Shown here: in pieces, positions 51,607 to 63,743 of the stretch
Layout of the letters: the number at the start of each line of letters is the position of its first letter
Numbering within the stretch: the stretch's first letter is position 1
Origin: Amphritea atlantica
GTDB taxonomy: Bacteria; Pseudomonadota; Gammaproteobacteria; Pseudomonadales; Balneatricaceae
Reading direction: 5' to 3'
NCBI GenBank assembly: GCA_024397875.1
Contig: CP073345.1
Location: forward strand, 241,077-305,076
Length of the DNA stretch: 64,000 nt
Made by a program: the position numbers and the translations under genes
Notes under the pieces: generated by a model
Database searches by the model: none
What the model was told of the DNA's origin: nothing
Seen by the model: only the letters and a program-made list of their open reading frames with translations

Positions 51607-51853
51607 AAAAACAGAGTATTAACTTTAATCTCTTTTACAAACAGTGAGTTAAAAAACAAACTTTCAAGATCCGCCCCGCTCACATCGTGAGCCGCAGCGC
51701 ATCATTGTAAGGCGGATACCGAGACCTGATTACAAAAAATGTTTACTTATAGTGCAGAGAATGCACACAAAATATTAATATATTGAATACAAATTAAGGC
51801 GTCATAGAACAAAATCACCCAATTCAGGCTGCTCTTCAACAACATACAGACAC

Positions 51854-51890
51854 AAAAAAACCCCGGTTCTCTGCAGAAGAGAAGCGGGGC
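51854..51890 (-). terminator. Terminator upstream of tsx-like gene (ends a minus-strand RNA)
   Basis: On the minus strand CCCCG-C-TTCTCTT / AGAGAA-C-CGGGG forms a long stem, followed by seven T. The nearest annotated upstream gene is dddR, whose stop is 430 bases away, so it may end a long 3' UTR or a separate small RNA. Confidence 0.8.
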
Positions 51891-52107
51891 TCTATTAAAA
51901 TAAGTACTCTCCGGAGGTCCAACAATGACCGAAGGCCATTACAGCATAGTCTTTTTAGACGATGGCCCCCGGGTCAGTCATACAACGACATATAACCGAA
52001 TCCGGTTCGAAGACGCTCTGACTCGCTCGAGGCGGACATGCTGCGGCGATCAAAAATAATCCTTTGCAGGCTTTATACAGGTTCAGCGAGTTGAATGTCA
52101 TCAATCT
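51854..52107 (-). ncRNA. Candidate small RNA or structured dddR 3' UTR
   Basis: Minus-strand DNA downstream of a TATAAT (52114-52119) contains a series of short hairpins: AACCG-GATT-CGGTT, GTCT-AAAA-AGAC (51949-51960), AATGGCC-TTC-GGTCATT (51924-51940) and CTCCGGAG (51909-51916), then the strong terminator. Four GGA triplets occur, reminiscent of CsrA/RsmA-binding RNAs but fewer than usual. An exposed ACCTCC stretch is complementary to Shine-Dalgarno sites. No -35 was found. A plus-strand 44-codon frame (51925-52059) with GGAGGT before it overlaps and is an alternative reading. Confidence 0.3.
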
Positions 52108-52319
52108 AGCCCGATTATATTCGAGCCACTGTAGTCCTCCCTGATTCCTGAAAGGTGACATAGACTTCGACACCTGAATCGGAACATTTTGTGTCGGTCA
52201 CTATCAGTTGCCGTGCAAACAATGGGGCTTTATGCAGGCAACCATCGTTGGTTGCCTTTTCCGGTAACTGGCTTGTCACGCGTTCCGCTGATAACCATTG
52301 GAACCCGTCCATCAGCAAC

Positions 52320-53237
52320 TTATTCAGTAAAGTGGGGAATAATCTGTTCCCGTCCCAGTTCCGCCTCGCCAATGATCCAGGCACGAAATGTTTCTGCATG
52401 GGGATGTTCATACTGATTATCGGGAGATACCAGATAAAAGGCTTCCGACGTAGGTACCCGCTCTTTGAGCGGAGCAACCAGACGACCCGATTCAATCATG
52501 CCAGCGACAAGCGCTGTACGTCCCAGCGCGATGCCTTGCCCGCAAGCAGCCATTTCCAGTGCGGTTATCAGTGTATCAAACTGTAGACCCTGATCAGATT
52601 TAACCTCTTGATGGCCTGTCTGACTGAGCCAGTATCCCCAACCCTCTTCATAGCCCACCACATGCAACAGGTCATGTTCAGCCAGTGCAGCCGGATTATC
52701 CGGTAGTGCATTGCCACTATCAAGTACAGGACTACAGACCGGGATCAACTCATCCCAGGATAAACGGTCAGACCTGAAGCCGCGCCAGTTGCCTTGACCA
52801 TAGCGGATCTTCAGATCCGTATCCTTTTCCCGCTCATCGGGCCAGATATTACTGCTGAAGCGCAAATTAACGTCTGGATGCAGTTTACGAAATTTCCCCA
52901 ACCTGGGCGCCAGCCAGGTCGTAAAGAAAACCAGATTAGTTCTGACCGTCAATAAGCGGGTACGCCCCTTACCGAAAATTTCATCGGTCGCGACGGCCAG
53001 ACGCTGAATCGATTCATGCACTGCGGGCAGATAGGCCATACCCGCCTCGGTCAGTTCCAGCCCCCGGGGTAAACGCTTAAACAGGGTTACCCCCAGTTGC
53101 GATTCGAGTCCTTTTATCTGCTGGCTGATCGCCGCCTGAGTCATATTCAACTCAGTGGCGGCCTGGGTAAAATTCAAATGCCTGGCTGAAACCTCAAAAG
53201 AGCGCAGCCAGTTGAGAGGCGGTAATCTTTTTTTCAA
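52320..53237 (-). CDS. dddR: LysR-family regulator of the DMSP cluster (DddR-like)
   Basis: GcvA-type LysR regulator of 305 residues. The N-terminal winged helix-turn-helix is PPLNWLRSFEVSARHLNFTQAATELNMTQAAISQQIK-like (about 6-65), followed by a periplasmic-binding-fold effector domain (about 92-297, PDVNLRFSSNIW, ALEMAACGQGIALG). The position after dddC matches Marinomonas, where DddR activates dddD in response to DMSP products. Here a terminator (53294-53329) separates it from dddC, so it probably has its own promoter. Regulation of dddD is inferred. Confidence 0.85.
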   Translation of the reverse strand: MKKRLPPLNWLRSFEVSARHLNFTQAATELNMTQAAISQQIKGLESQLGVTLFKRLPRGLELTEAGMAYLPAVHESIQRLAVATDEIFGKGRTRLLTVRTNLVFFTTWLAPRLGKFRKLHPDVNLRFSSNIWPDEREKDTDLKIRYGQGNWRGFRSDRLSWDELIPVCSPVLDSGNALPDNPAALAEHDLLHVVGYEEGWGYWLSQTGHQEVKSDQGLQFDTLITALEMAACGQGIALGRTALVAGMIESGRLVAPLKERVPTSEAFYLVSPDNQYEHPHAETFRAWIIGEAELGREQIIPHFTE

Positions 53238-53293
53238 TGTGTTTCCTATAAAAACAGATATCGCAGAGGATCTATTATATATAAGAATAACGC

Positions 53294-53329
53294 AAAAAAG
53301 GCCACATACTCATCGCTGAATATGTGGCC
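53294..53329 (-). terminator. Terminator after dddC
   Basis: On the minus strand a 9-base stem GGCCACATA / TATGTGGCC is followed by TTTTTT, 18 bases after the dddC stop. Confidence 0.85.
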
Positions 53330-53346
53330 AATACGGTGACTATTGG

Positions 53347-54843
53347 TTACTTCATGGTTGGCATTGAGAACTCAACACCTTCACGCACACCCGCAGAAGG
53401 CCAGCGCTGAGTAATCGTCTTACGTTTGCTATAGAAGCGCACACCATCCGGACCATACGCATGCAGGTCACCAAACAGAGAGCGTTTCCAACCGCCGAAA
53501 CTGTGGTAGGCCACGGGTACCGGCAGGGGTACATTGATACCCACCATGCCGACCTGGATGTGATCGGAGAAATAACGGGCAGCTTCGCCATCACGGGTAA
53601 AGATACAGGTACCGTTACCGTATTCATGATCGTCAATCAGCTGCATCGCTTCGTCCATGCTGCTGACGCGCACAACCTGCAGTACCGGCCCGAAGATCTC
53701 TTCCTGGTAACTCTGCATGGCAGGGGTAACGCCATCAATCAGGGTGGCACCGACGAAGAAGCCCTCTTCATAACCGGCAACCTGAGGGTTACGCCCATCA
53801 ATCACGACCCGCGCACCATCGGCTTCCGCACTGTCGATATAACCCACCACTTTCTGCTGGTGCTGACGGGTAATGACCGGGCCGAAATCGTTGCTGCTAT
53901 CACTATAGGCACCCACTTTCAGGGTCTGCATCGCTTCGCTCATTTTAGCGACCAGTGCATCGGCAGCGGCATCACCGACAGCAACGGCGACAGACAGTGC
54001 CATGCAACGCTCACCGGATGAACCAAATGCAGCACCCAGCAGCTGGTTTACCGCATTATCCATGTCGGCATCAGGCATGATAATCGCGTGGTTCTTCGCA
54101 CCACCCAGCGCCTGGCAACGCTTACCATTGGCATTCGCTGTGGTATAGATGTACTCGGCAATCGGTGTAGAACCCACGAAGCTAACCGCTTTGATACGCT
54201 CATCAGTCAGCAGTACATCGACCGCTTCCTTATCACCGTTGACCACGTTTATTACGCCATCCGGCAAGCCTGCTTCCTGCAGCAGCTGGGCGATAAACAG
54301 TGTGGAGCTTGGATCGCGCTCGGATGGTTTCAGAATGAAGGTGTTGCCGCAGGCAATCGCCAGTGGGAACATCCACATCGGCACCATCGCCGGGAAGTTA
54401 AACGGCGTAATACCGGCCACCACACCCAGTGGCTGGAATTCGCTCCAGGAATCGATATTCGGACCGACGTTTTTGCTGTGTTCACCTTTCAGCAGTTCCG
54501 GAATACCACAGGCAAACTCAACGTTTTCAATACCACGCTGCAGCTCACCCGCCGCATCATGGCTGATTTTACCGTGCTCTTCACCGATCATCTCACAGAT
54601 GCGGTCGGCATTCTGTTCCAGCAGTTCCTTAAAGCGGAACATGACCCGGGCACGTTTAATGGCCGGAGTGTTACGCCATGCAGGGAACGCAGCCTGAGCC
54701 GCAGCGATAGCGTCTTCGACGGTGGCTTTAGATGCCAATGCGACCTGCTTGGATGCGGTGCCGGTGGCAGGATTATATATATCCTGGACCCGCGCTGCGT
54801 CGGTGACAATTTGACCGTTGATCAGATGTCCAACTGTGTTCAT
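53347..54843 (-). CDS. dddC: CoA-acylating (methyl)malonate-semialdehyde dehydrogenase, DddC
   Basis: Aldehyde dehydrogenase of 498 residues (MmsA family) that turns malonate semialdehyde, NAD and CoA into acetyl-CoA and CO2, the final step of the DddD route. Seen: ITPFNFPAMVPMWMFPLAIA, KPSERDPS, the catalytic Cys280 in FGSSGERCMALSVAVAVG, the missing general-base Glu typical of the CoA-dependent branch, and FGGWKRSLFGD. It follows dddB by 77 bases. The same enzyme could also serve valine or inositol breakdown, but the context favours DMSP. Confidence 0.92.
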   Translation of the reverse strand: MNTVGHLINGQIVTDAARVQDIYNPATGTASKQVALASKATVEDAIAAAQAAFPAWRNTPAIKRARVMFRFKELLEQNADRICEMIGEEHGKISHDAAGELQRGIENVEFACGIPELLKGEHSKNVGPNIDSWSEFQPLGVVAGITPFNFPAMVPMWMFPLAIACGNTFILKPSERDPSSTLFIAQLLQEAGLPDGVINVVNGDKEAVDVLLTDERIKAVSFVGSTPIAEYIYTTANANGKRCQALGGAKNHAIIMPDADMDNAVNQLLGAAFGSSGERCMALSVAVAVGDAAADALVAKMSEAMQTLKVGAYSDSSNDFGPVITRQHQQKVVGYIDSAEADGARVVIDGRNPQVAGYEEGFFVGATLIDGVTPAMQSYQEEIFGPVLQVVRVSSMDEAMQLIDDHEYGNGTCIFTRDGEAARYFSDHIQVGMVGINVPLPVPVAYHSFGGWKRSLFGDLHAYGPDGVRFYSKRKTITQRWPSAGVREGVEFSMPTMK

Positions 54844-54920
54844 GTGATTTTCCTCAAAGTTGAATCAGGCAGGACTTCGCCTGCCGGTATAGCATAGGGA
54901 GACAATTGCTAAGTTCGGCG

Positions 54921-56078
54921 TTACCAGAGTTGCTTGTAGATCTCGACAATCTGTTCGGCACTGGGAACGCGCGGGTTATTATTCGGTGAACCTGACGCCA
55001 GCGCTTGTTCAGCCATGGTCGGCATCAGGTCAAAGAATTCCTGGCGAGCAATGCCGAACTGCTCCGGTGTTGGCACCTGCAGCTCGTCGTTCAGAGCCCG
55101 CAACTCATCCATCAGTTTACTGTTGGCCACGTCGGTGCTGTCCTGCTCAGTGGCAACGCCCATCGCCCGGGCGCAGTCCGCGTAGCGTTCTGCGGCTTCA
55201 GGGATAGAGAACTCGGTGACCGCAGGCAGCAGCATCGCATTCGACAAGCCATGGGGCACGTGGAAAGCAGCACCAATTGGCCGACTCATGCCATGCACCA
55301 GCGCGACCGAAGCGTTGGAAAAAGCAATCCCCGCCAGTGTTGAGCCCAGCATCATCGCTTCCCGGGCGGCTTTATCAGCGCCATCGTGGAACACCCGACG
55401 CAGATTAGGGCCGATCAGGCGCATCGCCGAAAGTGCCTGACTATCGCTGTATGGACTAGCCTTCTTACTGACATAGGCTTCCATTGCATGCGTCAGCGCA
55501 TCAATACCGGTATCCGCCGTAATCCGCGCTGGCAGGCTCAGTGTCAGACTGAAATCCACCAGTGCTGCGACCGGCATAAAACCGATACCAACACAGAGCA
55601 TCTTCTCGTCAGTGGTTTCATCCGTAATGATGGTAAAACGGGTCACTTCGGATCCGGTACCGGCGGTGGTTGGTACCGCTATAATCGGCAGACCTTCCTC
55701 ATTGACGATACGCGGGAATTTGTAATCCCGCATCGTGCCGCCGAACTTACCCAAAATACCGATCGCCTTGGCACTGTCGATCGGACTACCGCCACCCAGG
55801 GCGATAATACTGTCGTAGTTACCATTACGCACAGTATCCACACCCGCCTGAATAGAGCTGACGGTCGGCTCTGGTACCGTGTCATCAAAGACCTCGGCGG
55901 TAATGGACTGTGCTGCCAGACAGGCTTGAATATTGCCGGCATAACCCAACTGAACCATCATCTTGTCGGTAATAATCAGTGGCCGGGAGCAGCCCAGACT
56001 GGCGAGAATCGCCGGAATTTCCTGACTTGCACCTTCACCAACCTGCATTACGCGGGGAAGAATTATTTGAGAAGACAT
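54921..56078 (-). CDS. dddB: Iron-dependent alcohol dehydrogenase DddB
   Basis: Group III alcohol dehydrogenase of 385 residues predicted to oxidise 3-hydroxypropionate to malonate semialdehyde. NAD site ALGGGSPIDSAKAIG and TTAGTGSEVT. All four metal ligands align with E. coli FucO: Asp193 and His197 (TGIDALTHAMEAY), His262 (LVHGMSRP) and His276 (FHVPHG). It lies between dddT and dddC as in Marinomonas. A second, degenerate homologue sits downstream of dddD at 61369-62550. Confidence 0.92.
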   Translation of the reverse strand: MSSQIILPRVMQVGEGASQEIPAILASLGCSRPLIITDKMMVQLGYAGNIQACLAAQSITAEVFDDTVPEPTVSSIQAGVDTVRNGNYDSIIALGGGSPIDSAKAIGILGKFGGTMRDYKFPRIVNEEGLPIIAVPTTAGTGSEVTRFTIITDETTDEKMLCVGIGFMPVAALVDFSLTLSLPARITADTGIDALTHAMEAYVSKKASPYSDSQALSAMRLIGPNLRRVFHDGADKAAREAMMLGSTLAGIAFSNASVALVHGMSRPIGAAFHVPHGLSNAMLLPAVTEFSIPEAAERYADCARAMGVATEQDSTDVANSKLMDELRALNDELQVPTPEQFGIARQEFFDLMPTMAEQALASGSPNNNPRVPSAEQIVEIYKQLW

Positions 56079-56195
56079 AAGAACTCCACATTGTCTAAGA
56101 TCCCAGCATCATCAGACTGGGAATCCAATAAATAAGCACTGCCCGGACACCGCAGCCAGATGGCTCCGCTGTCCGGTTCGGCTTTGTGTTAACGG

Positions 56196-57824
56196 TTATG
56201 TGTTAACGGTTACAGCAACATCGGTTTCACTGGCGGAGGCCGTCAGTACAGCGTTTGCACGGTTCTTAGGAGGAACTGCCAGCGTCCCTGGAAGCGGCTC
56301 TTCACGTAATGATTTACACAAGCCGAAAGCCGCGAGAATGACCACAATCGAGAACGGTAATGCAGCAACAATAGACGCGGTCTGCAAGGCTTTAAGTCCA
56401 CCAGCAAACAGCAATACTGCAGCAACCGCACCGATAGCCATACCCCAGAAGACCCGGAAACGCGCCGGCGGATGCTCATCACCCATGGAGATCAGCGTAC
56501 AGATAACCAGCGTCGCTGAGTCAGCCGAGGTTACAAAATAAGTCACCAGCAAAACGGTACAGATACCCGCCATAAGCATGGTCACCAGCTCACCATTGCC
56601 CATCAGTTCAATCGTTTTAAACAGCGCCATCGTCAGATCATCGTTAACCGCCTCGGTCACACCGCCGCTGCCGAACAACTCAATAAACATCGCGGTATTA
56701 CCAAAAATGGTGATCCATAGTGTCGCCAGTATAGTCGGCGCCAGCAGCACACCCAGGACAAACTCACGAATGGTACGACCTTTAGATATACGGGCGATAA
56801 ACATGCCACAGAAAGGTGCCCAGGCGATCCACCAGCCCCAGTAGAAAATAGTCCACCAGCCCTGCCACTGACTCTCAGGGTCAGGATTAACCCATAAACC
56901 CAGCTCCACTGCATGGAACAGGTAGTCACCGGTATTGGTGAAGAAGGAGCCAAGTAAGTAAGCAGTTGGTCCAAAGATGACAAACAGCAACAGAATCACT
57001 ATCGTCAGCTGCATATTCAGCTCACTGAGAATCCGGATTCCCTTATTCACGCCGGAAAGAACGGAGGCGGTAGCAACAACCGAGATAACGGCAATCAGAA
57101 TAATCTGATTGGTGATAGACACTTCCAGTCCGAGCAGGTAATTCAGGCCGGCATTCATCTGTTGCGCGCCAAGGCCCAGCGAGGTAGCAATACCAAAGAC
57201 GGTACCAAATACAGCCAGCAGGTCCGCTGCATGACCAATAGGCCCGTAAATCTTGTCACCAAAGATGGGATACAGGCTCGAACGGATAGAAAGGGGTAAG
57301 CCTTTACGATACGAGAAATAGGCGAGTGCCAGACCGATGACTGCAAATAATCCCCAGCCATGCAGTCCCCAATGGAAGATAGCAATACGCATAGCCGCCT
57401 GAGCAGCTTCTACCGTCTGCGCCTGTCCTTCTGCGATAAACGGGTTACTCTGAAAGTGATAGATTGGCTCGGCAATACTCCAGAACAGGATACCTATTCC
57501 GATACCCGCGCCAAACAGCATGGAAAACCATGAGAAACGGCTAAACTCAGCCTTTTCGCCTTCTTTCCCCAGTCGGATATCGCCATAACGGCTAAATATC
57601 AGCCATACGGAGAGAAACAGAAACGCACTCATGATCCCCACATAGTACCAGCCGAGGTCTGACGCAATATACCCTTTAGCGGCACTGTAGATCGAATTGG
57701 CATATTCCGGATCGATAACGGTAAATAACACAAACGCCATTACCAGCAGACCTGAGCCGATCGCCATAATGGGGTGAGTACCGGCAAACAGGCCCGTTTC
57801 AGGCATCATCGCTTTATAATTCAT
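56196..57824 (-). CDS. dddT: BCCT-family carrier, probable DMSP/betaine importer DddT
   Basis: Betaine/carnitine/choline transporter of 542 residues with 12 membrane segments. Family signature: GWWTIFYWGWWIAWAPFCGM, then FIARISKGRTIREFVLGVL; also FGAGIGIGILFWSIAEP and the aromatic substrate box typical of trimethylammonium/dimethylsulfonium carriers. The ATG (57824) overlaps the TGA of the upstream usp gene (ATGA), and AAAGGAG lies upstream, so translation is coupled. The long charged C-terminus of osmosensing BetT is absent. DMSP as substrate is inferred from the cluster. Confidence 0.92.
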   Translation of the reverse strand: MNYKAMMPETGLFAGTHPIMAIGSGLLVMAFVLFTVIDPEYANSIYSAAKGYIASDLGWYYVGIMSAFLFLSVWLIFSRYGDIRLGKEGEKAEFSRFSWFSMLFGAGIGIGILFWSIAEPIYHFQSNPFIAEGQAQTVEAAQAAMRIAIFHWGLHGWGLFAVIGLALAYFSYRKGLPLSIRSSLYPIFGDKIYGPIGHAADLLAVFGTVFGIATSLGLGAQQMNAGLNYLLGLEVSITNQIILIAVISVVATASVLSGVNKGIRILSELNMQLTIVILLLFVIFGPTAYLLGSFFTNTGDYLFHAVELGLWVNPDPESQWQGWWTIFYWGWWIAWAPFCGMFIARISKGRTIREFVLGVLLAPTILATLWITIFGNTAMFIELFGSGGVTEAVNDDLTMALFKTIELMGNGELVTMLMAGICTVLLVTYFVTSADSATLVICTLISMGDEHPPARFRVFWGMAIGAVAAVLLFAGGLKALQTASIVAALPFSIVVILAAFGLCKSLREEPLPGTLAVPPKNRANAVLTASASETDVAVTVNT

Positions 57825-58270
57825 GACGCACTCCTTTCGCGTATTACCATCACGGAACAATCAGCATGACGCATGACATGGGCAGCATTGGCACCAATCA
57901 GGTAGTCTTTCAGTTCTGGGCGATGGGATGCCATGACGATCAGATCCGCATCAACAGAAGTCGCCAAACGAAGAATCTCTTTGTAAATGCTCCCCTGACC
58001 AACCATTGGGTTAACGGAAATATTTTCCGGAACCTGCTGTGTAATCAACTGATTGAGTGATTCGAGGCCCTCCTGCCGGATATGCTCATCAATTCCATCC
58101 GGTAAATGAGCCGCAATAGCGGGAATATCGGCATTAGGAACAACTGTTACAACATGCAATGTTGCACCGTTGCTGTGCGCTTGTTCGATTGCATCCGGCA
58201 GGGCTGAACGCCACGAGCTTTCGTGGTACAGATCTACCGGTATGACGATGTTGTTGTATTTATTATTCAT
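57821..58270 (-). CDS. Universal stress protein (UspA) coupled to the DMSP carrier
   Basis: Single-domain UspA protein of 149 residues: NIVIPVDLYHESSWRSAL, LHVVTVVPN, and DADLIVMASHRPELKDYLIGANAAHVMRHADCSVMVIR. The nucleotide-loop glycines (GxxGxxxxxxxxxG(S/T)) are only partly kept: the stretch reads RPELKDYLIGANAAHV, so ATP binding may be weak. It heads the operon usp-dddT-dddB-dddC and overlaps dddT by four bases. TeaD, a Usp partner of the ectoine TRAP system in Halomonas, is a precedent for a Usp protein tuning a transporter; the same is inferred here. Confidence 0.9.
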   Translation of the reverse strand: MNNKYNNIVIPVDLYHESSWRSALPDAIEQAHSNGATLHVVTVVPNADIPAIAAHLPDGIDEHIRQEGLESLNQLITQQVPENISVNPMVGQGSIYKEILRLATSVDADLIVMASHRPELKDYLIGANAAHVMRHADCSVMVIRERSAS

Positions 58271-58802
58271 GGTTCGTCTCTTTGCTTAGGGTTCAGGTTT
58301 TTGAATCGAGCCCGGTGGCATTGATCACTTCTTCCAGACCTGCTGCAGAAGCAATTCGACTGTCATTGTTATGAATCCCCCCAGAGCTGAAAAGCAAAAA
58401 AAAAACACCCTTAGGCCATAAAATATTTATGTATAGATGAGTGACTCCTGACCATTTAAGATAAATTACAACAAAAACAAGAAGATATGCTGTGTACATT
58501 TCAAGCCAGACCGAAAGACATAAAAAAAATGATGTCTAAGAGGTTTTTTTTATTGCTGGTTCCGCTCCTGCTTCACTCCTAACATTCCTAACAGATAGCC
58601 CTCCCATGCCGAACAGTCCCGTCGGCAGAGGAACGTTATCAGCGATCAGGCCGGTGTCGTCTTAGGCGATCACTCAACCGTACCCATGATCGCTTTGAAT
58701 ACAAACCGGCATTTCCGTATGCAATAGTAGAAACCGATCGTTCCGCACCTTGATTTGCGTTGCTACAGGCAGGAACAGCTTCTGATTAGGAAGAAAATTG
58801 AG
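58271..58802. promoter_or_regulatory. 532-base divergent control region of the DMSP cluster
   Basis: No supported gene. It must hold the promoters of usp-dddTBC (minus) and dddD (plus). Visible: AGACAT-N10-ATGTCT (58516-58537), direct repeats CCTAAC (58578-58583 and 58587-58592) akin to the CTAAT element of GcvA sites, and TGCCGA / TCGGCA arms at 58607-58626. These are candidate DddR sites. A 68-codon minus-strand frame (58293-58499) lacks support. Confidence 0.45.
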
Positions 58803-61316
58803 ATGAATAATAACAACCAATTACCCCTGACCGGTGTCCGCGTAGTGGACTTTGGCCAGCAGATTGCGGGTCCAGCGGCAGCCATGACACTGGCAGATCT
58901 CGGTGCCACAGTGATACATATCGACCCACCTCAGGGGCCTCAATGGAACCATCCGGCAAATGCCATTCTCAACCGCAACAAGAGCTGTCTGAGCCTGGAT
59001 CTGAAGACCCGTAGCGGTCTGGAGCAAGCACTGTCGCTGATCGAACAGGCTGATATCGTTATTGAAAGTTTTCGTCCGGGTGTCATGCAGCGTTTGGGTA
59101 TCGATTTCGAGCAGTTACGCGCTGAGCGCCCGGAATTGATCACCCTCTCTGTGCCGGGTTTTGCCAGCAATGATGAACTGCGGCGTGAATGGAAAGCCAC
59201 CGAAGCGGTGGTGGCTGCCACCTCTGGCGCTTTCACCGATATGGGTTTCAACCGGGTGCTCATGGGTATTGAACCCAGCTTCTCACCTCTGCCGCTTGGC
59301 TCGTCCTACGCCACTACGCTGGCCGCTGGCTCAGTCGTGCTGGCCCTGCTGGAGCGGGAAAAAACCGGACGTGGAGACAGCATCGAAGTTCCGGTAAGTG
59401 CTGCCCTTATGGAAGGCCTGTCTTACAACTCCTATGTTGTCGATGGATTACCCGATCGCTATAAAACCATGCGTGAGCACGAGATCGAATACCGCAAAGC
59501 TAACAACATTAAAATGGATCTCACTTATGAAGATCTGCAGGAATATCTGGATCCTTTCTATCGCACTTATGAGTGTGCCGATGGTCGCAAGTTCTACTGT
59601 GTCTGCCCATCCCACCGCAACCATGCCAAACGGGCTTTGCAGGTTCTGGGAATCTATGATGAGCTGGTCGCCGAAGGCTTGCCCGATGTAAAAGATCTGC
59701 ACCAGCCGATTGCAGAATGGGAGGGGGAAACCTCGATTGGAGTTTATCCACTGCCGAAAAAGTGGGCAGACATTATCTCTGCAAAAATGAAAAAGGCTTT
59801 TTTGACCAAGACCTCTGAGGAGTGGGGCGTGGCCTTTGGCGAAGGCCAGATTCCGGGTGCACCGCATCGCACCACCCAGGAATGGGTTAACGATGAACAC
59901 ACCAATGCCGCTGGCCTGATCGTTGAAGTTGATGATCCGGAATACGGCTTGATGAAACAACCGGGCCCCTTTACCTGGTTTGAACATAATGCCGGGCAGA
60001 TGCTGACACCACGGCCACGCAAAAAAGTCAGCTTTGATGAGGCATTGGCAGAGCTGAAGTCCGTTGCTCAGGCAGACACGGTCACCCGCCCTGTAGGTAA
60101 TGCTATTCAGCCGGCATCCGGCAAAGGCTGGCTGGACGGTCTGCGGGTTCTGGATCTGACCAATGTGATTGCCGGCCCGCACTCCGGCGCCTTCCTGAGC
60201 CGTTTCGGTGCCGAAGTGATCAAGCTTGATCCGGTTACGCCACTGTATGATCCTTTGATCGGCACCCTGTTTAGCTTCCAGACCGACATGGGCAAGAAAA
60301 AAGCCCTGGTTGATATCACCACGACTGAGGGACGCGAAGCGTTCAACCGCCTGGTACGTTCAGTCGATCTGGTACTGATCAACGCACCGAGCCGGCAGAT
60401 GATACCTCTGGGCCTGGACCATGACAGCCTGCAGGCCATAAATCCGGGTGTGCTGTTCTGCCGCCTCGACTGCCTTGGCGGCCCGCGTCCGGGACCCAAA
60501 ACCAACTATATCGGTTACGACGATATCATTCAGGCTAACAGCGGTATTATGAGTCGCTTTGGCGGTCCGGACACCCCTGAGGAGCACGCCCACCTGGGAA
60601 CACTGGATGTAAACTGTGGTTTTGCTGCCGGTCTGGGGATGGCCGTGGCGATCTATCACAAACTCAAAACCGGAATTGCATCCCGTGTCAGAACATCGTT
60701 GTCAGCAGCTACCAACCTGGCCCAGATTCCCTTTGCGTTCGACTATGAAGGCCGGGCACCATTCGATGAACCCTCCGGTCGTAATGTACAGGGGAATCAC
60801 GAGCTGTCCCATTTCTACGAGACCAGCGATGGCTGGATATTCCTCGACTCAGATATCTCTGAGCTGAATAGACTTAGCGCTGTAGAGGGTCTGGAGCAGA
60901 TCACTCAAGCTGAGTGCATCTCAGACTACCTGACAACGGCCTTTAAACAGGCCGCTACCGCATACTGGATAGATGTTCTGCACAGTGCAGATATCGCAGC
61001 GGCAGAACCTAACTCGATCGAAACCCTGCGCGATCAGTACAGCCGCGTAGCCGATGGCTGCGTGGGTATCGACCGGGGCAGCTATGCCTTCTCGATCCAT
61101 CCTGATCATCCCAGTGGTCACTGCCTGACACAGATAGATCATTACGCCATCCGGCCTGTTGAGGCCAGGATCAAAGCGGTGTCGCCCGCGGAAAGCTTCG
61201 GTCATTCCACCCGCGAAGTACTCAGCTCGGTGGGTTACAGCGAGATTGAAATCGAGTCGATGATTGAACGCAAAATTGCGGGCCTGGCCTGGGGTAAAGA
61301 GTTCCTGCCAAGTTAA
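58803..61316 (+). CDS. dddD: DMSP acetyl-CoA-dependent CoA-transferase/lyase DddD
   Basis: Key enzyme of DMSP breakdown: it transfers CoA from acetyl-CoA to DMSP and releases dimethyl sulfide with 3-hydroxypropionyl-CoA. It consists of two fused class III CoA-transferase (CaiB/BaiF) domains, about 1-400 and 440-810, each starting with GVRVVDFGQQIAGPAAAMTL or LRVLDLTNVIAGPHSGAFLS. The catalytic aspartate of the second domain is codon 602 (LGTLDVNCGFAAG), the same number as reported for Marinomonas DddD (from memory). With the ATG at 58803 the length is 837 residues, normal for DddD; an upstream ATG at 58755 is less likely. It is divergent from usp-dddTBC. Confidence 0.95.
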   Translation: MNNNNQLPLTGVRVVDFGQQIAGPAAAMTLADLGATVIHIDPPQGPQWNHPANAILNRNKSCLSLDLKTRSGLEQALSLIEQADIVIESFRPGVMQRLGIDFEQLRAERPELITLSVPGFASNDELRREWKATEAVVAATSGAFTDMGFNRVLMGIEPSFSPLPLGSSYATTLAAGSVVLALLEREKTGRGDSIEVPVSAALMEGLSYNSYVVDGLPDRYKTMREHEIEYRKANNIKMDLTYEDLQEYLDPFYRTYECADGRKFYCVCPSHRNHAKRALQVLGIYDELVAEGLPDVKDLHQPIAEWEGETSIGVYPLPKKWADIISAKMKKAFLTKTSEEWGVAFGEGQIPGAPHRTTQEWVNDEHTNAAGLIVEVDDPEYGLMKQPGPFTWFEHNAGQMLTPRPRKKVSFDEALAELKSVAQADTVTRPVGNAIQPASGKGWLDGLRVLDLTNVIAGPHSGAFLSRFGAEVIKLDPVTPLYDPLIGTLFSFQTDMGKKKALVDITTTEGREAFNRLVRSVDLVLINAPSRQMIPLGLDHDSLQAINPGVLFCRLDCLGGPRPGPKTNYIGYDDIIQANSGIMSRFGGPDTPEEHAHLGTLDVNCGFAAGLGMAVAIYHKLKTGIASRVRTSLSAATNLAQIPFAFDYEGRAPFDEPSGRNVQGNHELSHFYETSDGWIFLDSDISELNRLSAVEGLEQITQAECISDYLTTAFKQAATAYWIDVLHSADIAAAEPNSIETLRDQYSRVADGCVGIDRGSYAFSIHPDHPSGHCLTQIDHYAIRPVEARIKAVSPAESFGHSTREVLSSVGYSEIEIESMIERKIAGLAWGKEFLPS

Positions 61317-61324
61317 TCGCGCCA

Positions 61325-61350
61325 AACAGGCGGGGGAGTCCCCGCTTGTT
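61325..61350 (+). other. Intercistronic hairpin between dddD and the ADH paralogue
   Basis: AACAGGCGGGG pairs with CCCCGCTTGTT (one G-T pair) around GAGT, eight bases after the dddD stop. Only ACTTTT follows, so it looks like a leaky terminator or message stabiliser. A strong AGGAGG ribosome site follows at 61359. Confidence 0.55.
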
Positions 61351-61368
61351 ACTTTTCAGGAGGACTGC

Positions 61369-62550
61369 ATGTCTTATCGTATCGTATCTCCACGTATTAT
61401 GCAGATTGGTGACGGTGCGATCTCAGAGCTACCGCATATTCTTCGCTCACTGGGTTATCGAACCCCGATGATCGTGACCGATATAACCATCGCCGGTCTG
61501 GGTATTGCCACCCGCATCTCTCAACTGCTGGATACGTATCGTATCAGCCACGAAGTTTTTCAGGAAATACCCTCAGAGCCGACGATCACTGCGATAACCG
61601 CGGGCGTAACCAGAGTGCTGGCCGGCAATAACTACCTTTACCCCGAGCCTTTTGATTGCATCATCGCCCTGGGTGGCGGCAGCACAATCGACACCGCTAA
61701 AGCGATCGGCAGGGTAGCAGAATCCGGCTTCAGGTCTCTGGATACCCGCTATCACACTTCATCGACTGACGGTCTGCCCATTATCGCAATACCGACCGCC
61801 ATCGGCGGATCTGAAACGTCAAAATACAGTTTTATTAAGGATAACAACGCAGAATCACAGATAACCTGCACCGACCTGGGCTTCAGTCCGGTTGCGGTGA
61901 TAGTCGATTCTGAACTGAATCGCAGTCTCCCCTTACGAATGATTGCCGATTCGGGGCTGGCGTCATTAGCCCGGGCAATCGAATCGTTCGTCAGTCGCAA
62001 AGCCACGCCGTACAGCGATCAGCAAGCGTTAACAGCCATCCGCCTGATCATCCAAAACCTGCGTCCGGCGGTGCTGCAGAAACATAATACCACTGCGCGG
62101 CAAGCCGTCATGCTGGGTGCCAACCTGGCAGGCACCGCTTTTTCCATCACCTCGGGCGCCCTGTTACAAAGTATGAGCAACACGCTGCAAAGCTTTTGTC
62201 GCCTGCCTCATCATCTTGCCAATGCGATGCTGTTACCCGCCATAACAGCGTTTTCCGCCCCGTCGGCCCCGGATCGGTACGCGACCTGCGCAAGAACCAT
62301 CGGCATAGCGCTCGATAATGATAGTGATCAGGTCGCCATCGCAAAACTTACTGATGAGTTAAAAGCACTATACCGGGCGCTAAAAATCCCAGGCCTGTCA
62401 GCATACGGTGTGGAACAAGAACATTTTCAGACACATCTCGAACAAATGACCGAACAGGTCATCGCATCCGACCTGATTCACAACCATCCATGTATGCCAA
62501 CCCAGCAGGAGATAACCCGGATCTATCAACAGCTGTGGCACCAGGAATAA
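61369..62550 (+). CDS. Iron-ADH-like protein lacking metal ligands (probable pseudoenzyme, DddB paralogue)
   Basis: Protein of 393 residues homologous to DddB end to end (MSYRIVSPRIMQIGDGA against MSSQIILPRVMQVGEGA). The NAD-phosphate loop ALGGGSTIDTAKAIG is kept. Three of four metal ligands are replaced: Asp to Ala198 and His to Arg202 (ADSGLASLARAIESF), His to Gln267 (LLQSMSN); only His281 remains. The GTGSEVT segment is also altered (IGGSETSK). The frame is intact and the AGGAGG ribosome site strong, so it is expressed but probably not a metal-dependent dehydrogenase. It may act as a regulatory or structural partner, or as a binder of a DMSP metabolite. Start at 61369; an upstream extension overlaps dddD. 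Confidence 0.88.
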   Translation: MSYRIVSPRIMQIGDGAISELPHILRSLGYRTPMIVTDITIAGLGIATRISQLLDTYRISHEVFQEIPSEPTITAITAGVTRVLAGNNYLYPEPFDCIIALGGGSTIDTAKAIGRVAESGFRSLDTRYHTSSTDGLPIIAIPTAIGGSETSKYSFIKDNNAESQITCTDLGFSPVAVIVDSELNRSLPLRMIADSGLASLARAIESFVSRKATPYSDQQALTAIRLIIQNLRPAVLQKHNTTARQAVMLGANLAGTAFSITSGALLQSMSNTLQSFCRLPHHLANAMLLPAITAFSAPSAPDRYATCARTIGIALDNDSDQVAIAKLTDELKALYRALKIPGLSAYGVEQEHFQTHLEQMTEQVIASDLIHNHPCMPTQQEITRIYQQLWHQE

Positions 62551-62768: not shown

Positions 62769-63743
62769 ATGCAATTCAGATCTCCACCTCAGACGACCAC
62801 CACGGACGGCGCTGTCAGACGCGTTGGCTTTGAACTGGAATTTACCGGGCTTACGCTTGAGCAGGCAGCCGAACAACTACACAACACCTTCGGCGGCAAG
62901 CTTAATAAGGACTCCGCGGCCGAACAGTCCCTGCAGACCGACGACTTTGGCACCTTCAATATCGAGCTGGACTGGGATTACCTTAAACGTAAAGCCAAAG
63001 AAGCCCGGCAGCAGGACGATGGTCACGAATGGGTCGGGTTTCTGCAGCAGGCCGCCTCACACGTGGTGCCCCTTGAAATAGTCTGCCCGCCCATCCCGCT
63101 TGACCAACTCGAACGGCTGGATGAGCTGGTCGCTGCTCTGCGCAAAGCCGGTGCGAAAGGCACCGACGACTCCGTGATTGCGGCCTATGGTGTGCACATC
63201 AATCCTGAACTCCCGAGTCTTGATGCCGCCACGATTGACCGTTATCTGAAAGCCTTCGCCCTGCTGCAGTGGTGGCTGGTAGACGCCCATGAGGTGGATC
63301 CCACGCGCAAGCTCAGCCCCTACGTCGACCTGTACCCGGAAGCCTATCTTGAGGCTGTGCTAGGCGAATCAAATCCCGATATGGACACTCTGTTTGATCA
63401 ATACCTGAAGCACAATGCAACCCGCAACCGGGCACTCGACCTGCTACCGCTGCTGGCTGAAATTGACGAACCGCGGGTACGCGAAGTGGTGGATGACCCC
63501 AAAATCAAAGCCCGACCCACCTTCCACTACCGGCTCCCTAACTGCATGATGGAATGTGACGACTGGAGCCTCGCCAGCAGCTGGAATCTGTGGTGCGTTG
63601 TGGAACAGCTGGCAGCAGATCCGATCGCTATCCAGACCCTTACCGAGCGGTTTATGGAACGCTCCCGCCCACTGATAGGCGTCAGCCGCAGAACCTGGCA
63701 AAAGGACATTTCTCAATGGCTCAGCGACCGCGGGTGGGCGTAA
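62769..63743 (+). CDS. Putative amidoligase family enzyme
   Basis: Member of the predicted amidoligase family (COOH-NH2 ligases related to glutamine synthetase and GCS), 324 residues. Seen: the N-terminal strand VRRVGFELEFTGL, which in this fold carries the metal-binding Glu pair (ELEF), a second acidic strand FNIELDWDYL, VVPLEIVCPPIP, AAYGVHINPEL with a His/Asn pair, and FHYRLPNCMM. It overlaps the next gene (C26 amidohydrolase) by 28 bases; this pair recurs in bacteria and is thought to make and break amide or peptide-like bonds. GC content looks higher than in the rest of the window. Substrate unknown. Confidence 0.8.
   Translation: MQFRSPPQTTTTDGAVRRVGFELEFTGLTLEQAAEQLHNTFGGKLNKDSAAEQSLQTDDFGTFNIELDWDYLKRKAKEARQQDDGHEWVGFLQQAASHVVPLEIVCPPIPLDQLERLDELVAALRKAGAKGTDDSVIAAYGVHINPELPSLDAATIDRYLKAFALLQWWLVDAHEVDPTRKLSPYVDLYPEAYLEAVLGESNPDMDTLFDQYLKHNATRNRALDLLPLLAEIDEPRVREVVDDPKIKARPTFHYRLPNCMMECDDWSLASSWNLWCVVEQLAADPIAIQTLTERFMERSRPLIGVSRRTWQKDISQWLSDRGWA

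What the first reader, a model, noticed from the sequence alone, without database searches (positions are those of the whole stretch)
61369..62550. Iron-ADH pseudoenzyme downstream of dddD
The protein is a full-length paralogue of DddB, whose gene is also in this cluster. At the FucO metal positions it reads Ala198, Arg202 and Gln267 instead of Asp, His and His; only His281 stays. The cofactor loop GGGS-IDTAKA is kept, as are the strong ribosome site and intact frame. This pattern suggests selection for a non-catalytic role, for example a regulatory subunit of DddB, an NAD or metabolite sensor, or a metal-free enzyme with new chemistry. I know of no described DMSP component of this kind.
Basis: partly seen in the sequence, partly recalled or inferred. 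Interest (0 to 1): 0.85.

Follow-up and report, generated by a model that had tools for sequence, protein, structure and literature searches.

The report
Metal-site-less DddB relative beside dddD
Next to the gene for a marine sulfur-compound lyase, a few Amphritea bacteria carry a look-alike of an iron enzyme that has lost its iron site but is still kept intact by selection, so it probably does something other than the original reaction.

Summary
ORF 61369-62550 is an intact 393-residue Fe-ADH, 46% identical to the cluster's DddB, 52 bp after dddD. At the four FucO ligand columns it reads A198/R202/Q267/H281; no shift restores them. It is not a one-strain accident. A branch of nine sequences (100/100) has lost His202 (Arg or Lys) and shares an insert; eight of nine have a shortened nicotinamide-side loop. 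Ligand states run DRHH, ARHH, ARQH, ARQL, RKER; 216 of 216 other rows examined keep DHHH. In three of three same-genus genomes with dddD at 80% identity or more, the gene sits 52-54 bp after dddD; none of 15 dddD loci (71-86%) from other genera has it. After ligand loss, dN/dS is 0.23 (0.16-0.32): below 1, yet 2.6-9 times that of the neighbouring ddd genes. Constraint is strongest in the cofactor/former metal region (0.12 versus 0.34), a gradient DddB shows too. I read it as a lineage-specific, fast-evolving pseudoenzyme whose cleft still binds a dinucleotide or small acid without metal redox chemistry, as an accessory or sensor in DMSP catabolism. That function is inferred. A metal-free enzyme (maleylacetate reductase is a published precedent), a DddB subunit and slow decay remain open.

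The parts
61369..62550 (+). Fe-ADH-fold pseudoenzyme gene (393 aa), the subject
   Evidence: intact frame; AF2 model mean pLDDT 85.6; the 50 best Foldseek rows shown are Fe-ADH-type chains
61960..61962 (+). Ala198 codon (FucO Asp196 column)
61972..61974 (+). Arg202 codon (FucO His200 column); Arg in 8 of 9 clade rows, Lys in the ninth
62167..62169 (+). Gln267 codon (FucO His263 column)
62209..62211 (+). His281 codon (FucO His277 column), the only ligand kept
61672..61683 (+). GGGS motif at the start of the cofactor helix (residues 102-105); GGGS in 6 of 9 clade rows, GGDS in P0006 and P0008, GSGS in L053b
61798..61809 (+). nicotinamide-side loop (residues 144-147), one residue shorter than DddB TTAGTGSE; shortened in 8 of 9 clade rows, not in L053b
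61627..61647 (+). clade insert, residues 87-93 (NNYLYPE); an L/F-x-P signature in all nine clade rows
61325..61350 (+). 11-bp GC-rich hairpin between dddD and the pseudoenzyme gene; near-identical in L023, an unrelated hairpin at the same place in L053
   Evidence: not flagged by the terminator scan; no Rfam match at E <= 1
58803..61316 (+). dddD (CoA-transferase family III, DMSP lyase)
   Evidence: start taken from the ATG of the L023 orthologue
54921..56078 (-). dddB, canonical Fe-ADH with all four ligands
53347..54843 (-). dddC (MMSDH, TIGR01722 above cut-off)
56196..57824 (-). dddT (BCCT transporter)
57821..58270 (-). universal stress protein gene in the cluster
52320..53237 (-). LysR-type regulator in the dddR position

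Best explanation
A lineage-specific pseudoenzyme of the DddB/Fe-ADH family that belongs to the Amphritea DMSP-catabolic cluster. Shown: the metal site is gone, in a graded series across relatives; the gene sits directly after dddD in all three same-genus genomes examined that have a close dddD; its protein stayed under purifying selection after ligand loss, most strongly in the cofactor/former active-site region. Inferred: it is probably made with DddD (52-54 bp gap, own strong ribosome site in the window). It probably folds as a normal Fe-ADH dimer. It probably grips the ADP-ribose/pyrophosphate half of a dinucleotide through the kept GxxS..ID..K and Pro-Thr elements. With the nicotinamide side and metal site remodelled, and a basic side chain (Arg/Lys202) where an iron ligand sat, it would not do metal-dependent hydride transfer. 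Its most likely role is binding NAD(H) and/or a C3 acid of the pathway (3-hydroxypropionate or malonate semialdehyde) to buffer, sense or tune DMSP catabolism. Rough odds: accessory/sensor 0.45, DddB-associated subunit 0.2, metal-free enzyme 0.18, slow decay 0.17.
For: Ligand states: 216 of 216 other rows DHHH; none of nine clade rows. One branch at 100/100 in two trees. The gene follows dddD in 3 of 3 same-genus genomes with dddD at 80% identity or more, and in 0 of 15 other-genus loci with dddD at 71-86%. The block shared with A. atlantica L023 is 52263-62540, ending within 10 bp of this gene's end, with different flanks. dN/dS 0.23 (0.16-0.32); residues 96-290 0.12 versus 0.34 elsewhere, Fisher p 4.7e-5 for amino-acid changes. 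The most degenerate member, L053b (RKER, 31% identity), is an intact 378-aa frame; neutral substitution simulations from dddB to 46% or 30% identity left 0 of 200 runs each without a stop. L053b keeps canonical-conserved residues more in the NAD domain (40 of 90) than in the metal domain (30 of 117), p 0.005.
Against: No expression, binding or genetic data. The cofactor-domain bias is seen in L053b but not in P0001 (56 of 90 versus 77 of 117, p 0.66). The central gradient is also seen in DddB (5 of 197 versus 33 of 188 changes), so it could be inherited fold constraint. The Lys and Arg invariant in canonical rows (DddB K159, R266) are Gln164 and Asn271, GGGS is not strictly kept in P0006, P0008 and L053b, and Asp38 is Gly in L053b; the AF2 model is weak at residues 121-170 (block means 48-74, against 85-92 in the DddB model, though P0001 has few close relatives in the alignment). 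NAD affinity may therefore be lost. Rapid divergence and restriction to one genus suggest a dispensable function.
Confidence: 0.45

Rival explanations
1. Metal-free enzyme: the cleft with Arg202 as electrostatic catalyst performs an NAD(P)H-dependent or non-redox reaction on an acidic C3 substrate, in the manner of maleylacetate reductases.
For: PMC5125639 (passages) states that MARs are active without metal, with the Asp ligand replaced by Asn or Arg, and infers the same for FeADH2 and some HEPD members. Central region dN/dS 0.12. Arg in 8 of 9 rows, Lys in the ninth.
Against: The clade also loses His202 and, in 7 of 9 rows, His267 (6 Gln, 1 Glu). The former active-site residues keep changing inside the clade (DRHH, ARHH, ARQH, ARQL, RKER), unlike a settled new active site. 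DddB Lys159 is kept only in P0005 and P0007.
Confidence: 0.18
2. Heteromeric partner of DddB: the paralogue forms mixed dimers with DddB and sets its activity or stability.
For: Same cluster, same fold; FucO is a dimer (PMC10324492 passages). Full-length fold predicted.
Against: Between G000 and G013, DddB is 90% but this protein only 31% identical; a tight interface with a slowly changing partner should change more slowly. 15 of 18 close-dddD genomes do without it at this place.
Confidence: 0.2
3. Slowly decaying gene: catalysis was lost and the remaining constraint is weak or historical.
For: dN is about seven times that of dddB (0.081 versus 0.012) and dN/dS 2.6-9 times the neighbours'; further ligand loss in P0006 and L053b; the C-terminal quarter (291-393) is only 69% identical between G000 and L023, whose other ddd proteins are 95-98% identical.
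Against: dN/dS is clearly below 1 after ligand loss (near-highest of 1000 resamples 0.38). No internal stop in any of the three loci, and the G000 and L023 copies have equal length. Even at 31% identity the frame is open, where neutral simulations gave 9.7 stops on average (substitutions only, no indels).
Confidence: 0.17

Closest known systems
DddB (Fe-ADH of dddD clusters)
   Same: Same family and full length, 46% identity, same gene cluster
   Different: DddB and relatives keep all four metal ligands (216 of 216 rows); this protein keeps one, has an insert and a shortened nicotinamide-side loop
ErcA/YiaY, regulatory Fe-ADH of Pseudomonas ethanol oxidation (NF041833)
   Same: An Fe-ADH-fold protein with a regulatory role in a catabolic gene set (PMC12997753 passages)
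   Different: 203 bits against a cut-off of 550; yiaY is co-cistronic with a hybrid histidine kinase, absent here; its H281 is reported to matter for induction (same passages)
Maleylacetate reductase (MAR, cd08177)
   Same: Fe-ADH fold, active without metal, Asp ligand replaced (PMC5125639 passages)
   Different: MAR reduces a C=C bond in aromatic degradation; PcpE needs His172 and Lys238 (PMC5741723 title and passages; their columns here were not mapped); this clade also loses His ligands; 69-73 bits to the two solved chains named MAR
FucO lactaldehyde reductase (TIGR02638)
   Same: Fold and end-to-end alignment; best NCBIfam profile
   Different: 220.6 bits against a cut-off of 523; metal ligands lost

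Membership tests
Fe-ADH superfamily (PF00465/PF25137) | Profile match above gathering score over both domains | tested here: met
   fold match
Metal-dependent Fe-ADH (group III) | Asp-His-His-His metal ligands | tested here: not met
   A-R-Q-H
DddB | Groups with DddB of dddD clusters and keeps the metal ligands | tested here: not met
   separate branch 100/100; ligands lost
DddB | Oxidises 3-hydroxypropionate to malonate semialdehyde | not testable with these tools
   needs assay
ErcA (NF041833) | Score above curated cut-off 550 | tested here: not met
   203 bits
ErcA (NF041833) | Adjacent hybrid histidine kinase | tested here: not met
   neighbours are dddD, an amidoligase, LysR, BCCT, Usp, MMSDH
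Maleylacetate reductase | Active without metal on maleylacetate | not testable with these tools
   needs assay
Maleylacetate reductase | Catalytic His and Lys of PcpE (His172, Lys238) | not tested
   columns not mapped
Pseudogene | Disrupted frame or dN/dS near 1 | tested here: not met
   no internal stop in three genomes; dN/dS 0.23

The most novel reading that the evidence does not exclude
A previously undescribed component of bacterial DMSP catabolism (none found in paper searches): a metal-free DddB-like protein, made with DddD, that binds NAD(H) or 3HP/malonate semialdehyde through a recycled dehydrogenase cleft (Arg/Lys in place of an iron ligand) and controls flux or ddd expression in Amphritea, a genus found to be a dominant user of DMSP carbon in one coastal study.
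Probability: 0.3. Interest if true: 0.75.

Novelty: new variant of a known kind. Interest (0 to 1): 0.52.

Why it matters
Pseudoenzymes in metabolic clusters are hard to tell from decaying genes. Here a graded series of ligand loss, selection after the loss, and a fixed place beside the lyase gene make the question testable. Amphritea was the dominant assimilator of DMSP carbon in the DNA-SIP study PMC9327192 (abstract and passages), so an extra unit in its ddd cluster could bear on DMS release.

Tried and rejected
Rejected: shifted alignment (no His near the sites); single-strain accident (three genomes plus database relatives); ErcA membership; a known RNA element between dddD and the gene (none at E <= 1). 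Not favoured but not excluded: a recent local copy of dddB (AU p 0.12).

Led nowhere: viral contigs (no relative); genome contigs gave only the A. atlantica locus L023. Plasmids: one search matched 1515 records, all below 60% identity (best listed 46%; ligand states not read), 41 records matched and the 20 listed matches lie within the dddD part of the query. The paper searches listed no description of this protein; figures and supplements of PMC9327192 were not seen.

Artefacts of mine: I translated loci of the genome search as if all lay on the plus strand, so L019 and L027 showed false ligand states and minus-strand loci dropped out; orientation was fixed and, for L027. The 216 canonical rows are 183 P and 33 L rows, 212 of them distinct, all chosen by similarity to this protein. 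Left out before that count: the nine clade rows, L001, L004 (same as P0003), and the distant or short L003 and L016-L022. Fe-ADH hits at about 30-38% identity in other same-genus genomes were not each checked for ligands. The tree has one extreme branch (L053b), whose place inside the clade is weakly supported (81/31).

Full report
What is there. The ORF at 61369-62550 (+) has an AGGAGG ribosome site, an ATG, 393 codons and no internal stop. It matches both Fe-ADH Pfam domains above cut-off and aligns nearly end to end with solved methanol dehydrogenases and FucO. An AlphaFold2 model has mean pLDDT 85.6, with Fe-ADH-type chains as the Foldseek matches shown. It lies 52 bp after dddD in a cluster LysR-dddC-dddB-dddT-usp (minus strand) / dddD-this gene (plus strand). 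A second Fe-ADH, DddB at 54921-56078, is 46% identical; the only other match in the genome at E <= 0.001 is 29% identical.

Metal site. FucO binds iron through Asp196, His200, His263 and His277 (PMC10324492, passages). The same columns read A198, R202, Q267, H281 here and D, H, H, H in DddB. No His lies near 202 or 267, so no shift restores the site. Other changes: the column of FucO His267 (contact of the catalytic water, same paper; mapped by me) is Asn271 here and Arg in 216 of 216 canonical rows; the Lys found in 216 of 216 is Gln164; the loop TTAGTGSE is one residue shorter. Asp38, the column that I take for the coenzyme-preference position discussed in PMC5125639 (passages; mapping from recall), is kept in 8 of 9 clade rows and is Gly in L053b.

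Relatives. Two searches of 5.8 billion proteins (best 120 listed of 2120 and 1610 matches, 8000 and 7999 candidates scored) listed seven entries of this clade besides the query, P0002-P0008; the score falls from 693 bits (P0008) to 533 (P0009). P0002, 99% identical, may be the same species. Ligand states are ARQH (P0001-P0004, P0008), ARHH (P0007), DRHH (P0005) and ARQL (P0006). A ninth row, L053b from genome G013, reads RKER; it was not in those lists, so further divergent members may exist unseen. All 216 other rows examined read DHHH (212 distinct). The nine form one branch with 100/100 support in two trees. All nine have an insert with an L/F-x-P motif (GNNYLYPEPFD here); the shortened loop is in eight, L053b having a longer, different loop. 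The nearest canonical rows are P0009/L024, P0010 and P0028 (Oceanobacter kriegii by its source name): 96/92 but only 75/73. The cluster's own DddB is elsewhere in the trees, yet the AU test does not reject that union (p 0.12). His202 is lost in all nine, Asp198 is kept only in P0005, and His267 only in P0005 and P0007, so a stepwise loss is likely.

Genomic context. Of 116 genomes in the family, 28 have a dddD match at E <= 1e-150; 18 of these are 71-100% identical and 10 are 45-57%. Among the 18, the three same-genus genomes (G000; G016, whose contig has the length of the A. atlantica DSM 18887 contig L023; G013 = L053) carry the gene 52, 52 and 54 bp after dddD. The other 15 have no Fe-ADH ORF at E <= 1e-5 in the 1497-1500 bases downstream. 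Of 17 genomes of the genus examined, the other 14 have no dddD at 80% or more. In these the only match to this protein at E <= 1e-70 is a DddB-like gene beside a dddC in G014. In L023 the DNA similarity with the window is one block, 52263-62540, that ends with this gene; the flanks differ. In L023 and L053 the gene lies on the side of a tRNA-Phe followed by a pyrE-like ORF (tRNA; pyrE named from recall on the translations), so L053b is the positional counterpart. The window lies at the end of a 305-kb contig of a two-contig genome. That resembles A. [quoted passage not shown] the identification is my inference.

Selection. G000 versus L023 (Nei-Gojobori, own script): this gene dN 0.081, dS 0.353, dN/dS 0.23 (bootstrap 0.16-0.32); dddR 0.059, dddC 0.025, dddB 0.046, dddT 0.076, usp 0.088, dddD 0.088. 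Both species share the ligand losses, so this constraint acted after the metal site was lost. Residues 96-290 (cofactor helix, nicotinamide side, former metal site) have 16 of 195 changes and dN/dS 0.12; the rest 46 of 198 and 0.34 (p 4.7e-5). DddB shows the same gradient in G000 versus G013 (5 of 197, 33 of 188), so it may be partly inherited. G000 versus G013: dddB 90%, dddC 91%, dddD 80%, this gene 31%, an extreme acceleration, with dS saturated. Neutral substitution simulations from dddB (200 runs each, no indels) gave no run without a stop at 50%, 46% or 30% identity, and 13% at 84%.

What remains constrained. Of 207 columns that are 95% conserved in canonical rows and filled in DddB, 85 are kept in all seven clade rows used (P0002 and L053b left out), and 44 of these also in L053b, among them A100 L101 G102 S105 I107 D108 A110 K111 and P137 I139 A140 P142 T143 of the cofactor domain. 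GGGS itself is GGDS in P0006 and P0008 and GSGS in L053b. In L053b, retention is 40 of 90 in the NAD domain against 30 of 117 in the metal domain (p 0.005); P0001 shows no such bias (p 0.66). The AF2 control model of DddB (mean 92.8) stays at 85-92 through the stretch where the pseudoenzyme's model falls to 48-74 (residues 121-170). That fits a remodelled nicotinamide side, but P0001 also has fewer close relatives in the alignment.

Hairpin. Between dddD and the gene lies an 11-bp GC-rich hairpin (61325-61350), nearly identical in L023 and replaced by an unrelated hairpin in L053. It may end or protect the dddD message, or uncouple the two genes. It has only a short T run, was not flagged by the terminator scan and matches no Rfam family at E <= 1.

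Interpretation. The protein is a pseudoenzyme with respect to iron-dependent dehydrogenation, retained by selection in a narrow lineage. My preferred reading is a cleft-binding accessory or sensor protein; this step is inference. A metal-free enzyme is a serious rival, because MAR enzymes of this superfamily work without metal after loss of the Asp ligand (PMC5125639, passages). A DddB subunit is weakened by the unequal evolutionary rates. ErcA/YiaY shows that an Fe-ADH can serve regulation (PMC12997753, passages), but this protein is not an ErcA. PMC9327192 (passages) describes synteny dddBCDRT for Amphritea and a 50% identity threshold against ratified proteins, which a protein 46% identical to its own DddB might well miss; the passages I saw do not mention it.

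Noticed in passing
window 51841-52025; L023 11276-11777: A repeat (71-76% identical) lies left of dddR in the window and three times in tandem right of the pseudoenzyme gene in L023, just before a true tRNA-Phe; parts look tRNA-like by eye. It may mark island boundaries.
   Followed up: partly
L053 14315-15589: An ORF that looks like a phage-type tyrosine integrase (name recalled from the translation, no profile run) lies near dddR in G013.
   Followed up: no
window 62769-63743: A putative amidoligase (PF12224) follows the cluster, next to an ORF that runs off the window.
   Followed up: no
L053 2966-4714: In G013 a second BCCT-like transporter (44% to DddT) follows the pseudoenzyme gene.
   Followed up: no
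L086, L090, L091, L092: Four other same-genus genomes have DddD-like CoA-transferases at only 46-47% identity; possibly another function.
   Followed up: no
L045 8927-10135: G100 holds a second DddB-like gene beside a dddC-like gene, away from its dddD cluster, among the nearest canonical relatives of the pseudoenzyme clade; neighbours look like an IclR-type regulator and an FAD-linked oxidase (recalled from the translations).
   Followed up: partly
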